A stretch of DNA of 8,753 bases from Pseudorhodobacter sp. GTDB taxonomy: Bacteria; Pseudomonadota; Alphaproteobacteria; Rhodobacterales; Rhodobacteraceae. The DNA lies in NCBI GenBank assembly GCA_024641255.1, contig JAHEDL010000165.1, forward strand, positions 1 to 8,753. The letters run 5' to 3'. This document shows, piece by piece, positions 4,291 to 8,753 of this stretch. Below the pieces are notes generated by a model that was given only the letters and a program-made list of their open reading frames with translations, made no database searches and was not told the origin of the DNA. The translations under genes and the position numbers were made by a program. Positions within the stretch are counted from its first letter, which is position 1, and each line of letters begins with the position of its first letter.

Positions 4291-5184
4291 ATGAAGATCA
4301 AGAAGGTCACCAAAGCGGTATTTCCTGTCGCTGGCATGGGAACCCGTTTCTTGCCTGCGACCAAGTCGATCCCGAAAGAGATCATGACGCTGGTTGATCG
4401 CCCGCTTATTCAATACGCCATCGACGAAGCGCGCGCTGCAGGCATCAAGGAATTTATCTTTGTGACCTCGCGCGGGAAATCGGCGCTAGAGGATTATTTC
4501 GACCATTCGCCAGAGCTGGAAAACACCCTGCGCAAGGCGGGCAAAGACGAACTGTTGGAAATCCTGAAGGAAACCAACATGGATTCGGGCGCGATTGCCT
4601 ATCTGCGCCAAAACCGCCCGATGGGGCTTGGCCACGCCGTCTGGTGTGCGCGCCGTCTGATTGGCAATGAACCCTTCGCGGTTTTGCTGCCCGATGACGT
4701 GATCGCGGCTGAAAAGCCTTGCTTGCAGCAGATGATGGAAGCCTACGAACAAACTGGGGGCAACATGGTTGCCGCTATGGAAGTGGCGCCGGAAAAGGCA
4801 TCGTCCTACGGTGTGCTGGATATTGCCGAAGACATGGGCGCCATCGTGCAAGCCAAAGGCATGGTTGAAAAGCCCAAAGCTGGCGATGCACCGTCGAACC
4901 TTGCGGTGATCGGTCGCTATATTCTGTCACCGAACGTACTGACCAACCTGAACAAGATGAAGCAAGGCGCAGGCGGCGAAATTCAACTGACCGACGCGAT
5001 TGCCGAAGAAACCAAAGACGGCAAGGTGTTTGGCTATCGCTTCCGCGGTCAACGCTATGACTGCGGGTCGAAAGCGGGCTTCTTGCAGGCCACGGTTGCC
5101 TTCGGTCTGGCGCGCCCTGACCTGCGCGAAGAATTCGGCGCGTATTTGAACGATATGATCGCGCTGCAGAAAGCAGCGCAGTAA
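4291..5184 (+). CDS. galU: UTP-glucose-1-phosphate uridylyltransferase GalU
   Basis: GalU makes UDP-glucose from UTP and glucose-1-phosphate in the cytoplasm, the donor for glucosylation and the precursor of UDP-galactose and UDP-glucuronate used in surface glycans. The 297-residue length is normal. The nucleotide-binding signature is V-F-P-V-A-G-M-G-T-R-F-L-P-A-T-K at 10-25 with K-E at 29-30. Other family segments are G-L-G-H-A-V-W-C-A at 112-120, L-L-P-D-D-V at 132-137 (metal-binding Asp), S-S-Y-G-V at 171-175, V-E-K-P at 192-195, G-G-E-I-Q-L-T-D-A-I at 228-237 and Y-D-C-G-S-K-A-G-F at 256-264. The start at 4291 places the Lys-rich N-terminus as usual in the family, although only a weak GAAAGA (4277-4282) precedes it. 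It begins the second plus-strand block, and the glycosyltransferase after it starts only 5 nt beyond its TAA. Confidence 0.96.
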   Translation: MKIKKVTKAVFPVAGMGTRFLPATKSIPKEIMTLVDRPLIQYAIDEARAAGIKEFIFVTSRGKSALEDYFDHSPELENTLRKAGKDELLEILKETNMDSGAIAYLRQNRPMGLGHAVWCARRLIGNEPFAVLLPDDVIAAEKPCLQQMMEAYEQTGGNMVAAMEVAPEKASSYGVLDIAEDMGAIVQAKGMVEKPKAGDAPSNLAVIGRYILSPNVLTNLNKMKQGAGGEIQLTDAIAEETKDGKVFGYRFRGQRYDCGSKAGFLQATVAFGLARPDLREEFGAYLNDMIALQKAAQ

Positions 5185-5189
5185 CCCGC

Positions 5190-6353
5190 GTGGTTTCGGC
5201 ACGGCTTCTTGACCTGACGCGGCTTTTGTCGCGCTGGGGCAAGGGGCCGATGACCGGGGTAGACCGGGTCGAATTTGCCTATCTGGATCAACTTGTTTCA
5301 CGTGAAACGCCGGCCTTTGGCCTGCTGCGCAGCGCGCTTGGCTATCTGCTGATCGACCGCGCTGGCATGATCGCGCTGCGCGACGGTGCGCTTGATCTGC
5401 GCCGCGACATGATCGGCCGCATCGCGTGGCGCGACGATCCGCAGCGTGGCCATGCCGAAGCCGCCCTGCGCCGCCTTGCGATTGCGCGCTGCACCCGCTT
5501 TGGCCTGCGCCATATGCTGGCGCGCCACCTGCCGCAGGACGCTACCTATATTAACACCGGTCACACCAATCTTGATACGCGCGGTCTGGCACAGATCAAG
5601 GCGGCGGGGCTGCAAATTGCGGTTCTGGTGCATGACACCATTCCGCTGGATCACCCCAAATTTGCCCGCCCCGACAGCATCGCGCCATTTCGGCGCAAGC
5701 TGCAGGCGGTTTCAGCGCAGGCTGATCTGGTGATCCATAGCACCGAAGCCACCCGCACAGCGACCGAATCACAGTTCCTGACCATGGGGCGGGTGCCCCC
5801 CGGCATCGTGGCCAACCTTGGCGTGACGGTGGCCGACCCCCAGCCCTGCCCGCGCCCCGCAGCACCGTATTTCGTCATCCTTGGCACGATTGAGCCGCGC
5901 AAAAACCACGCCTTGCTGCTGGACCTTTGGCAAAGCATGACCACCCCACCGCACCTGCTGATCCTTGGCGGGCGCGGCTGGTCAATCGACGCGCTTGCCA
6001 CGCGGCTTGATGCACTGCCTGCAAGCGGTCCGATCCAAGAACGAGCGGGCCTGTCGGATGGCCAGATCAGCTTTCTGCTGCAAGGCGCGCAGGCACTGCT
6101 GTTTCCCAGCTTTGCCGAAGGTTTCGGCATCCCCGCACTAGAGGCAGCCAGCCTTGGCACCCCCGTCATCTGCAGCGATCTCCCGGTGTTCCGCGAACTG
6201 CTGGCAGACTTCGCGGTTTACCTGAGCCCGACTGACAGTTATTCTTGGATGGAAACAATCCAGCAATACGCTATGACAGGTAAGAAGATCAAAAAAAGCA
6301 AAGCTCAGCCAAGTTGGGCAGAGCATTTCAAGATTGTATTAAACAGGCTGTGA
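5190..6353 (+). CDS. GT4-type (group 1) glycosyltransferase, GTG start
   Basis: The 387-residue product is a GT-B fold retaining glycosyltransferase. The C-terminal half carries the diagnostic parts: F-V-I-L-G-T-I-E-P-R-K-N-H at 228-240 (donor phosphate-binding region), L-L-I-L-G-G-R-G-W at 256-264, and the E-x7-E motif E-G-F-G-I-P-A-L-E at 310-318 followed by G-T-P-V-I-C-S-D at 323-330. The N-terminal half (about 1-215) is the acceptor domain, with V-L-V-H-D-T-I-P-L at 145-153 in its core. It should be cytosolic or loosely membrane-bound; UDP-glucose from GalU is a plausible but unproven donor. The start is GTG at 5190, 5 nt after the galU stop, without a clear ribosome-binding site, so reinitiation is likely; no upstream in-frame ATG fits. 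Codons 36-40 (V-S-R-E-T) carry a parS-like palindrome. The last ~38 codons are much richer in A/T and Lys than the rest. Confidence 0.88.
   Translation: MVSARLLDLTRLLSRWGKGPMTGVDRVEFAYLDQLVSRETPAFGLLRSALGYLLIDRAGMIALRDGALDLRRDMIGRIAWRDDPQRGHAEAALRRLAIARCTRFGLRHMLARHLPQDATYINTGHTNLDTRGLAQIKAAGLQIAVLVHDTIPLDHPKFARPDSIAPFRRKLQAVSAQADLVIHSTEATRTATESQFLTMGRVPPGIVANLGVTVADPQPCPRPAAPYFVILGTIEPRKNHALLLDLWQSMTTPPHLLILGGRGWSIDALATRLDALPASGPIQERAGLSDGQISFLLQGAQALLFPSFAEGFGIPALEAASLGTPVICSDLPVFRELLADFAVYLSPTDSYSWMETIQQYAMTGKKIKKSKAQPSWAEHFKIVLNRL
5294..5309. promoter_or_regulatory. parS-like ParB-binding centromere site
   Basis: TGTTTCACGTGAAACG contains the perfect 14-bp palindrome GTTTCACGTGAAAC (5295-5308). 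It equals the broadly conserved bacterial parS consensus TGTTtCACGTGAAACA except for the final base. ParB dimers bind such sites, load as CTP clamps and spread to drive origin segregation. The site lies within the coding sequence of the GT4 glycosyltransferase, as many chromosomal parS sites lie inside genes. A perfect 14-mer of this kind is not expected by chance in a window this size. Whether ParB of this organism uses it is inferred. Confidence 0.8.
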
Positions 6354-6416
6354 TACCTCGGTCGTCACGACGGCAGAGCAGTGGAAGTGTAGCGGTTGGG
6401 CGTAGTATCGCAATAT

Positions 6417-7406
6417 ATGCTAAGGTTGGCGCGAAAACGCTGGCGAATCCGCGCTTTTCGCAAGCGGCGCGAGTTGCGTGCGGTTGTTGATCACACCCCG
6501 CAAATCGCCTCAAACCATATCCTGCTGTTTTCCACCCTGCGGAACGAACGGGTTCGCCTGCCGTATTTCCTGCGCTATTACCGCAGCCTTGGCGTCAATC
6601 ATTTCCTTATCGTGGACAATGATAGCGACGATGGCTCGCGCGAATACCTTGCCGCACAGCCTGACGTGTCGCTGTGGACAACCAAGCACAGCTATAAACG
6701 CGCGCGCTTTGGTGTCGATTGGCTGAACTGGCTGCAGGCCAAATACGCGCATGGCCATTGGTCGTTGATTGTCGATCCTGACGAATTCTTCGTCTACCCG
6801 TTCTGCGATACCCGCCCTCTGCGCGCCCTTACCGATTGGCTGGATGCCAGCTCGATCAAATCCTTTTCTGCGATGCTGCTGGATATGTATCCCAAAGGCC
6901 CGTTCGATGTGGTGCCCTATCAAGAAGGCCAGGACCCATTCGAAGTGGCGCCCTATTTCGACAGCGGCAACTATGTCATCCAGCGCAATCGCAAATATGG
7001 CAACCTGTGGATTCAGGGCGGGCCACGGATGCGGATGTTCTTTCAAGATCTGCCCGAACGCGCGCCTGCGCTGAACAAGATCCCTTTGGTGAAATGGGAT
7101 CGCGACTATGCCTATGTCAGTTCGACCCACATGCTGCTGCCGCGCGGGTTAAATCAGGTTTATGACGAATGGGGCGGCGAAAAGGCCTCAGGTTGCCTTC
7201 TTCATGCCAAGTTTCTGGATACCTTTGCCCATAAGGCAGAGGAAGAGATGGAACGCCGTCAGCATTATGCCAACAGCCACGAATACCGCGCCTATCGCGC
7301 CGGTATCAGCACCCAGCCCGATCTGTGGTGCAAGTGGAGCGAGAAATACATCAACTGGCGCCAGCTTGAAATTCTGGGGCTGATGTCGAAGGGCAACTGG
7401 GCATGA
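6417..7406 (+). CDS. GT2-like glycosyltransferase with DPDE motif (Glyco_tranf_2_4 type)
   Basis: From ATG 6417 this encodes 329 residues; numbering below uses that start. The GT-A core is visible as L-L-F-S-T-L-R-N-E-R at 36-45, F-L-I-V-D-N-D-S-D-D-G-S at 63-74 and L-I-V-D-P-D-E-F-F-V at 117-126, where D-P-D-E supplies the metal-binding acidic residues. This arrangement matches the family 2-related group often annotated as Glyco_tranf_2_4. The N-terminus is strikingly basic (about ten Arg/Lys in the first 21 residues), which could help bind the inner membrane surface. A TTG at 6396, 8 nt after GGAAG (6383-6387), is a possible longer start adding 7 residues; a TAG at 6390 rules out anything longer. 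I prefer ATG because the extra residues look unremarkable. It follows the GT4 gene by about 63 nt, and its TGA overlaps the next ATG (7403-7406). Substrates are unknown. Confidence 0.85.
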   Translation: MLRLARKRWRIRAFRKRRELRAVVDHTPQIASNHILLFSTLRNERVRLPYFLRYYRSLGVNHFLIVDNDSDDGSREYLAAQPDVSLWTTKHSYKRARFGVDWLNWLQAKYAHGHWSLIVDPDEFFVYPFCDTRPLRALTDWLDASSIKSFSAMLLDMYPKGPFDVVPYQEGQDPFEVAPYFDSGNYVIQRNRKYGNLWIQGGPRMRMFFQDLPERAPALNKIPLVKWDRDYAYVSSTHMLLPRGLNQVYDEWGGEKASGCLLHAKFLDTFAHKAEEEMERRQHYANSHEYRAYRAGISTQPDLWCKWSEKYINWRQLEILGLMSKGNWA

Positions 7407-8753
7407 CAGTTGGCTTCGTCATGCTGTGCCACACCGCCTTTGACCGTGCCGCCGAAGTGGCGCGGCACTGGGCGGTGCGCGATTGCCCGGTGGTGATCCA
7501 CGTTGACCGGCGGGTAAAGCGCAAGGCCTATGACGAGTTGGTCAAGGCGCTGTCAGATCTGGGCAATATCCGCTTTTCCGGTCGTCACGCCTGCGAATGG
7601 GGCACCTGGGGCATCGTTGCCGCCACGCAAGAGGCCGCAACCATCATGCTGCGCGACTTTCCGGCGGTGCGGCATGTGTTTCTGGCTTCTGGCTCTTGCC
7701 TGCCGTTGCGTCCGGTCGAAGAGTTGGTGGCCTATCTGGCCGACCGGCCGCGCACCGACTTCATCGAATCCGTCACCACCGAAGACGTGGGTTGGACAAT
7801 CGGCGGGCTGGATGTTGAACGCTTCACCCTGCGCTTCCCGTTTAGCTGGCGCAAACAGCGGCGGCTGTTTGACGGCTATGTGCGCCTGCAACGCCGCCTT
7901 GGCTTCAAACGCCGGATTCCCGCAGGCATCGTGCCGCATCTGGGCAGCCAGTGGTGGTGCCTTACCCGGCAAACCCTGTCCGCCATTCTGGAAAACCCCG
8001 AACGCACCGAAATTGACCGTTATTTCCGCCGCGTCTGGATTCCCGATGAAAGCTATTTCCAAACGCTGGTGCGGCAGGTGTCGTCCAACGTTGAAAGCCG
8101 GTCGCTGACCCTGTCGAAGTTCGATTTTCAGGGCAAGCCGCACATCTTCTATGACGATCACCTACAACTGCTGCGCCGCTCTGACTGCTTTGTTGCGCGC
8201 AAGATCTGGTCGCATGCCGACCGGCTTTACAACACCTTCCTGTTCGCCGATTCCGGCGCGCAGGCCGCGGCAGAACCCAACCCCAGCAAGATTGACCGGC
8301 TGTTTGCCAAAGCCGTTGAACGCCGCACCAAGGGCCGCCCGGGGCTTTACATGCAATCGCGCCACCCCAATGAAAACTGGGAAAATGGCCGCACAGCCGC
8401 GCCCTATTCGGTCTTCGAAGGCTTTGCCGATCTGTTCGACAATTTCGAAATCTGGCTGGGCAAAGCCACCGGCACCCGCGTGCATGGCCACCTGTTCGCC
8501 GAAGACCGCGTGCATTTTGCAGGCGGCGAAAAGATTTACAACGGCGCGGTCTGTGACGCTGCGGCGATGCGCGACTATAACCCGACCAGCTTTCTGACCA
8601 ACCTGATCTGGAACACCCGCGGCGAACGCCAATGTTTTCAGTTTGGCCCCGCCGACAATCAGGCGCTGATTTACTTCATCGCAGGCGACCCCAACGCGCA
8701 AATCTCTGTTATTTCCGGCGCTTGGGCGATTCCGCTGTTTCATTCCAACCGCA
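7403..8753 (+). CDS. Core-2/I-branching (GT14-like) glycosyltransferase with long C-terminal extension (partial)
   Basis: The frame is open from ATG 7403 through 450 codons to the right edge, so the C-terminus is missing. Residues about 3-255 match the core-2/I-branching enzyme family (GT14; beta-1,6-N-acetylglucosaminyltransferase and xylosyltransferase relatives): V-I-H-V-D-R-R at 31-37, F-L-A-S-G-S-C-L-P-L-R-P at 93-104, H-L-G-S-Q-W-W-C-L-T-R at 179-189 and I-P-D-E-S-Y-F-Q-T at 213-221, the last with the likely catalytic acidic residues. Residues about 256-450 form an additional region that I believe corresponds to the uncharacterised domain found C-terminal to this enzyme in bacteria (possibly Pfam DUF5927; not checked). 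AAGGG (7389-7393) lies 9 nt before the ATG, which overlaps the preceding TGA. No signal peptide or anchor is seen, unlike the Golgi enzymes of animals, so it should act in the cytoplasm. Donor sugar is unproven. Confidence 0.88.
   Translation, partial: MTVGFVMLCHTAFDRAAEVARHWAVRDCPVVIHVDRRVKRKAYDELVKALSDLGNIRFSGRHACEWGTWGIVAATQEAATIMLRDFPAVRHVFLASGSCLPLRPVEELVAYLADRPRTDFIESVTTEDVGWTIGGLDVERFTLRFPFSWRKQRRLFDGYVRLQRRLGFKRRIPAGIVPHLGSQWWCLTRQTLSAILENPERTEIDRYFRRVWIPDESYFQTLVRQVSSNVESRSLTLSKFDFQGKPHIFYDDHLQLLRRSDCFVARKIWSHADRLYNTFLFADSGAQAAAEPNPSKIDRLFAKAVERRTKGRPGLYMQSRHPNENWENGRTAAPYSVFEGFADLFDNFEIWLGKATGTRVHGHLFAEDRVHFAGGEKIYNGAVCDAAAMRDYNPTSFLTNLIWNTRGERQCFQFGPADNQALIYFIAGDPNAQISVISGAWAIPLFHSNR

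What the first reader, a model, noticed from the sequence alone, without database searches (positions are those of the whole stretch)
5294..5309. A near-perfect parS centromere site inside a surface-polysaccharide glycosyltransferase gene
TGTTTCACGTGAAACG matches the universal ParB-binding site at 15 of 16 bases with an unbroken 14-bp palindrome. It falls in codons 36-40 of the GT4 gene and encodes V-S-R-E-T. Chromosomal parS sites cluster near oriC, so this suggests the polysaccharide locus lies in the origin-proximal domain, or on a chromid or megaplasmid with its own parABS. ParB spreading could also affect expression of galU, the glycosyltransferases and the divergent export genes. No second copy was seen in this window.
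Basis: partly seen in the sequence, partly recalled or inferred. Interest (0 to 1): 0.72.

Follow-up and report, generated by a model that had tools for sequence, protein, structure and literature searches.

The report
Chromosome-partition site inside sugar-transferase gene
A sugar-transferase gene in this bacterium carries, written within its protein code, a copy of the DNA signal parS that the assembled genome otherwise shows only beside its chromosome-partition genes, and it likely serves as an extra outlying site for pulling sister chromosomes apart.

Summary
TGTTTCACGTGAAACG sits at 5294-5309, in codons 36-40 of an intact GT4 gene. The genome (3.08 Mb, 641 contigs, 84.9% complete) has four exact copies of the 14-bp core; the other three are on one contig, around mnmG-rsmG-parA-parB-hemW-ridA-rdgB. 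The genome's ParB carries parS-type specificity residues. Chance predicts about 0.01 core copies per genome. The window's gene order is conserved. Where relatives have the GT4 gene and parS on one contig, they lie 20-123 kb apart in the genus (5 genomes) and 33-397 kb apart outside it (7 genomes). The site is lineage-specific: 0 of 80 homologous loci carry it, and its codons fall in a variable stretch of the protein. Outlying parS sites come and go in this group: an amgK-like gene has one in 6 of 15 same-genus genomes, but not here. Best reading: a recently arisen satellite parS, probably bound by ParB. Binding, a segregation role and any effect on the polysaccharide genes are untested. Intragenic parS are already known, so this is a new member of a known kind, useful as a natural case of centromere change.

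The parts
5294..5309 (.). parS-type 16-mer TGTTTCACGTGAAACG (15 of 16 to the palindrome TGTTTCACGTGAAACA)
   Evidence: the same ...AACG variant is 8 of 67 core sites read in 17 genomes, this one included
5295..5308 (.). 14-bp perfect palindrome, parS core GTTTCACGTGAAAC
5190..6353 (+). GT4-family glycosyltransferase gene that hosts the site; codons 36-40 lie in a variable stretch
   Evidence: Pfam Glycos_transf_1; entropy rank 20 of 383 five-residue stretches
4291..5184 (+). galU-like nucleotidyltransferase gene just upstream
   Evidence: Pfam NTP_transferase; order conserved
6396..7406 (+). Glyco_tranf_2_4 gene, downstream neighbour
7403..8752 (+). Branch/DUF5927 glycosyltransferase gene, cut by the contig end
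374..1195 (-). ABC-2 type export permease gene, divergent
   Evidence: Pfam ABC2_membrane E 0.00047, below the curated cut-off; order conserved

Best explanation
The 16 bases are a parS sequence that likely acts as an outlying, lineage-specific member of this chromosome's centromere, where the cell's own ParB is predicted to load. Shown: the sequence; three matching sites around this genome's parAB; a ParB with parS-type specificity residues; the parAB-proximal place of this gene in most relatives where it can be measured; and the absence of the site in those relatives. Inferred: codons 36-40 of the glycosyltransferase tolerate many residues, so drift could build the palindrome there as V-S-R-E-T, the same reading that the rsmG site uses; once formed near the existing cluster, it would be tolerated or mildly favoured as an extra ParB loading point. 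Untested: ParB binding and spreading here, any role in moving the origin region, and any effect on the polysaccharide genes.
For: Four core copies in the genome against about 0.01 expected; three of them at the mnmG start, the rsmG start and between ridA and rdgB around parAB. Backwards control 0 in 120 family genomes. ParB aligns to Caulobacter ParB 6t1f with Q162, R173, N178, G201 and R204 kept and no lysine at 179 or 184 (residues from passages of PMC7383237). The ...AACG variant is 8 of 67 sites, among them mnmG, rsmG, coaE and rdgB sites of relatives. Conserved gene order and mostly short distances to parS and dnaA in relatives. Intragenic parS are usual here: rsmG and amgK-like sites both read VSRET, and coaE carries one too. 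[quoted passage not shown]
Against: The two contigs are not joined, so the distance in this genome is unknown. Same-contig distances favour short ones, because many contigs are small. Two outgroup genomes put the gene 307 kb (G010) and 397 kb (G014) from parS. The site is absent from all 80 homologous loci. If the gene order holds, it lies further from the recurrent sites (54-128 kb in the five genus genomes) than any other outlying site seen in the genus (at most 34 kb). Two of the contact positions named in PMC7383237 as shared by ParB and Noc (170, 171) differ here (S and R for G and K). No test of selection was possible: only peptides, not DNA, were available for the two near-identical homologues. 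About one chance core would be expected per 100 genomes, and this window was picked because it had one; G009 has a one-mismatch 16-mer away from its par contig.
Confidence: 0.72

Rival explanations
1. A chance palindrome: drift in a variable stretch of the glycosyltransferase made the sequence, ParB may or may not touch it, and nothing keeps it.
For: Absent in all 80 homologous loci; the host stretch is variable, rank 20 of 383; Markov expectation is about 0.01 per genome, so among many genomes some chance copies must exist; VSRET kept in P0001 and P0002 proves little at 2-3% divergence.
Against: Chance also has to place it near parAB; given V-S-R-E-T, the needed codons have a probability of about 0.003 by local codon use; in the listed relatives with two or more exact cores these lie close together (within about 41 kb, about 7 kb in the cut list), except G033, whose three fall on two contigs that both carry par-locus genes. 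Genomes with a single listed core (such as G055, G118) were not placed.
Confidence: 0.2
2. A regulatory parS: ParB loaded in the gene lowers or times expression of the polysaccharide operon.
For: P. aeruginosa ParB at intergenic parS3 and parS4 represses neighbouring genes (passages of PMC7022226).
Against: In B. subtilis, loss of Spo0J did not change genes next to parS (same passages). Here the site is inside the coding region, not at a promoter, and relatives keep the same gene order without it.
Confidence: 0.05
3. A partition site of a chromid or megaplasmid that carries the polysaccharide locus.
For: A second ParB_N-domain protein exists on contig C424; it was not followed up.
Against: The same core flanks the chromosomal mnmG-rsmG-parA-parB locus, and in twelve relatives the glycosyltransferase is on the same contig as the parS sites.
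Confidence: 0.03

Closest known systems
Chromosomal parS sites of Caulobacter and Pseudomonas aeruginosa
   Same: Same palindrome class, ParB of the same type; in P. aeruginosa nine of ten parS are most likely within coding sequences (passage of PMC4368675).
   Different: Here one site lies in a fast-changing stretch of a glycosyltransferase and is absent in all 80 homologous loci examined.
The amgK-like-gene parS of same-genus and Tabrizicola genomes
   Same: Outlying, intragenic, read in the same V-S-R-E-T frame in the genus.
   Different: It recurs in 6 of 15 genus genomes and in 2 Tabrizicola genomes, about 20-34 kb from the nearest recurrent site; the GT4 site is in one lineage and probably further out.
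rsmG-start parS on this genome's contig C633
   Same: Same 15-bp string in the same reading frame, V-S-R-E-T.
   Different: Present at 11 of the 11 genus rsmG starts read; no longer homology with the GT4 site beyond the palindrome.

Membership tests
Chromosomal parS | Near-exact 16-bp palindrome TGTTTCACGTGAAACA | tested here: met
   15 of 16, perfect 14-bp core
Chromosomal parS | Cognate ParB of parS type in the same genome | tested here: met
   ParB on C633 keeps Q162, R173, N178, G201, R204 (Caulobacter numbering) and has no lysine at 179 or 184; positions 170 and 171 differ
Chromosomal parS | Located in the origin/parAB region, in this genome | tested here: inconclusive
   The window and parAB are on separate 8.7-kb contigs
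Chromosomal parS | Located in the origin/parAB region, by gene order in relatives | tested here: met
   20-123 kb from parS in 5 same-genus genomes; 33, 46, 59, 62, 82, 307 and 397 kb in 7 others; 20-154 kb from dnaA in 4
Chromosomal parS | ParB binds and spreads from it | not testable with these tools
   Needs ChIP-seq or a gel shift
Conserved core parS set of this genus | Site present in orthologous genes of relatives | tested here: not met
   0 of 80 loci within 2 mismatches; 2 of the 120 listed homologous proteins read VSRET, both 97-98% identical to the query
Noc-binding site (NBS) | Noc-type protein with Q173, R201 and lysine at 179/184 | tested here: not met
   The C633 ParB has R173 and G201; the second ParB_N protein on C424 was not examined

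The most novel reading that the evidence does not exclude
This is a bacterial centromere caught while changing: a new parS built codon by codon in a variable stretch of a surface-sugar enzyme widens the ParB domain by tens of kilobases, in a lineage that lacks the outlying amgK-like-gene site most of its nearest relatives use, so the outer edge of the centromere has moved from one gene to another.
Probability: 0.25. Interest if true: 0.55.

Novelty: new member of a known kind. Interest (0 to 1): 0.36.

Why it matters
[quoted passage not shown] This genus offers a natural series: three sites that recur in most genomes (mnmG, rsmG, rdgB) plus outlying ones in coaE, an amgK-like gene, a LivM-like permease and now a glycosyltransferase that differ between close relatives. 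That makes site birth and loss directly testable with strains and ParB ChIP-seq.

Tried and rejected
A simple 'amgK-like site lost, GT4 site gained' relocation was tested and is not established. On the 22-taxon tree, equal costs favour the amgK-like site being absent in the ancestor of this lineage (5 against 6 changes); a tie comes when gains cost twice losses, and loss is favoured when they cost three times. The node that groups G026 with the other relatives apart from this genome has support of only 0.207. For this count G009, G012 to G015 and G016 were scored as lacking the site from their site lists or by default, not from reading their amgK-like genes.

Whether the coaE site is kept could not be tested: coaE was not found in this assembly, which has gaps. 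A search for SMC (Pfam hinge) found nothing, but the same search also misses Caulobacter among its controls, so it says nothing. Copying of a longer segment from the own rsmG, mnmG or rdgB site was rejected: there is no homology beyond the palindrome. A strain-level synonymous test was not possible, since no DNA of the two near-identical proteins was available. Structure prediction was not run.

Papers: PMC5815017 section 20 and passages; passages only of PMC4368675, PMC7383237, PMC7022226 and PMC6315104; search listings and abstract starts for the rest. Searches on parS with gain and loss or additional sites (12 listed), parS in Rhodobacterales (10 of 11 listed), parS with VSRET (none) and parS with a glycosyltransferase gene (none) showed no report of this site in their listings; most subscription papers are not held.

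Full report
What is there. The window is contig C632 of a genome of 3,076,540 bases in 641 contigs, 84.86% complete, 0.68% contaminated. The 16-mer TGTTTCACGTGAAACG is at 5294-5309 and no other copy within 3 mismatches of the core lies in the window. It is in frame in the GT4 gene at 5190-6353 as GTT TCA CGT GAA ACG, V-S-R-E-T, codons 36-40.

The rest of the genome. Four exact core copies exist. The other three are perfect 16-mers on contig C633 (8,744 bases), which reads mnmG, rsmG, parA, parB, hemW, ridA, rdgB, rph, hrcA (gene names by recognition; NCBIfam places ParA and ParB in their superfamilies, ParB above the parB_part cut-off). They lie at the mnmG start (F-H-V-K frame), at the rsmG start (V-S-R-E-T frame) and between ridA and rdgB. 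The ParB aligns to Caulobacter ParB 6t1f at E 5.3e-70. Counting along that alignment with the numbering of PMC7383237 (passages), it keeps Q162, R173, N178, G201 and R204 and has leucine at 179 and serine at 184, a parS-type and not a Noc-type set. At positions 170 and 171 it has S and R where Caulobacter has G and K.

Chance. Markov models of order 1 to 3, trained on five own contigs plus one own locus or on 297 kb of genus loci, expect 0.009-0.014 cores per 3.08 Mb. Given V-S-R-E-T, local codon use gives the codons GTT TCA CGT GAA ACN a probability of about 0.003 (5,608 codons, parS codons of rsmG and GT4 removed). In 120 family genomes, this one included, the core occurs in 108, usually twice, and the backwards control in none (its match list is cut). 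With one mismatch allowed in the 16-mer, the backwards control rings in 2 of 19 genomes. So a parS-like string in this gene is unlikely, but with many genomes scanned a chance copy somewhere is expected.

Place on the chromosome. The order SH3-like gene (name by recognition), ABC permease, inositol-phosphatase-like gene, kdsB-like gene, GT2, galU, GT4, GT2_4, Branch is kept in relatives (14 loci examined; the SH3-like gene was found in 7 of the 14 and kdsB in 12 of the 14, the rest in all). Of 15 same-genus genomes, 14 have the GT4 gene and 14 have a core; 13 have both, this one included. In 5 of the 13 both are on one contig: nearest parS 53 kb (G022), 60 kb (G023), 55 kb (G025), 20 kb (G026) and 123 kb (G024). 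Measured to the nearest of the three recurrent sites (mnmG, rsmG, rdgB) the values are 76, 60, 55, 54 and 128 kb. The other 8 cannot be judged. Outside the genus, 11 genomes were reached through 20 loci chosen from the 80 (one locus not held; eight of the 19 genomes are genus members). In 7 of the 11 the gene and parS share a contig, by equal contig length: 33 kb (G018, Marimonas lutisalis), 46 kb (G016, Maritimibacter alkaliphilus, 4.0-Mb contig), 59 kb (G019), 62 kb (G017, 2.6-Mb contig), 82 kb (G007), 307 kb (G010) and 397 kb (G014); in the other 4 they are on different contigs. dnaA was sought in 12 genomes and is on the GT4 contig in four: 20 kb (G024), 78 kb (G016), 148 kb (G017) and 154 kb (G014); in G024 and G016 the gene lies between dnaA and parS. 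Same-contig sampling favours short distances; G016, G017 and G018, with megabase contigs, are the least biased. In G022 and G026 the gene is on the amgK side of parAB and in G023 and G025 on the hrcA side, so the side here is unknown. In Rhodobacter sphaeroides ParB1 was used to mark OriC1 (passages of PMC6315104).

Lineage-specific. None of 80 homologous loci from genome contigs has the site within 2 mismatches; one has a 3-mismatch string elsewhere in the locus. No other row of the codon alignment reads VSRET. Among the 120 listed of 1,647 homologous proteins, 2 read VSRET: P0001 (97%) and P0002 (98%; a cluster that may hold the window's own protein). Positions 36-40 have mean entropy 2.49 bits against 1.29 for the protein, rank 20 of 383 five-residue stretches. 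The palindrome therefore arose recently, in a stretch that tolerates change. It was not copied with flanks from the own rsmG, mnmG or rdgB site.

Outlying parS sites are labile here. Beyond the three recurrent sites, relatives have intragenic sites in coaE (dephospho-CoA kinase) and in an amgK-like sugar kinase (below NCBIfam's AmgK cut-off), and single-genome ones such as a LivM-like permease in G024 (that name by recognition). Even the recurrent three are not in all: G007 and G010 have no exact core at rsmG, and G030 has none at rdgB (two cores in all; read as mnmG and rsmG). The amgK-like site is in 6 of 15 genus genomes, read V-S-R-E-T, and in Tabrizicola G007 and G010; this genome's gene reads DVSSDVE without it. 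On a 22-taxon tree of 14 concatenated proteins (some rows partial) it needs at least 5 changes, and whether this lineage lost it or never had it is not settled. The ...AACG ending is seen in 8 of 67 core sites read in 17 genomes, this one included.

Mechanism. The likeliest reading is an outlying parS: ParB would load here, slide into neighbouring DNA, and join the ParB domain that is moved first. [quoted passage not shown] P. aeruginosa has nine of ten parS most likely within coding sequences (PMC4368675, passage). So an intragenic extra site near the cluster is of a known kind. What is unusual is its youth, its host gene and its probable distance from the recurrent sites. Binding, spreading, selection and effects on polysaccharide genes remain untested.

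Verdict. Observation confirmed; the origin-proximal inference is supported by relatives but not shown in this assembly; the megaplasmid idea is unlikely; the expression idea is open. Moderate interest, as a natural example of centromere change.

Noticed in passing
L125 / G000:C8:6925-7938: The amgK-like gene of this genome lacks the in-frame parS that 6 of 15 same-genus genomes carry at that codon position and that two Tabrizicola genomes carry in the same gene.
   Followed up: yes
G022, G023, G025, G026: The GT4 gene lies on either side of parAB in different close relatives at a similar distance (54-76 kb from the recurrent sites), as expected from inversions around the origin.
   Followed up: partly
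L119:6321, L141:6517, L145:6225: Single-genome outlying parS cores about 10-16 kb from the rdgB site in G024 (in a LivM-like permease, F-H-V-K frame), G007 and G009.
   Followed up: partly
G009:C89:13843-13858: A one-mismatch parS 16-mer (TGTTTCCCGTGAAACA) on a contig other than the par contig of that genome.
   Followed up: no
   Followed up: no
G000:C424:6454-6633 (L091): A second protein with a ParB_N domain, perhaps of a plasmid or chromid.
   Followed up: no
L085: A record titled Enemella evansiae (an actinobacterial name, from recall) carries a Rhodobacteraceae-like GT4 homologue; probably a mislabelled or contaminated assembly.
   Followed up: no
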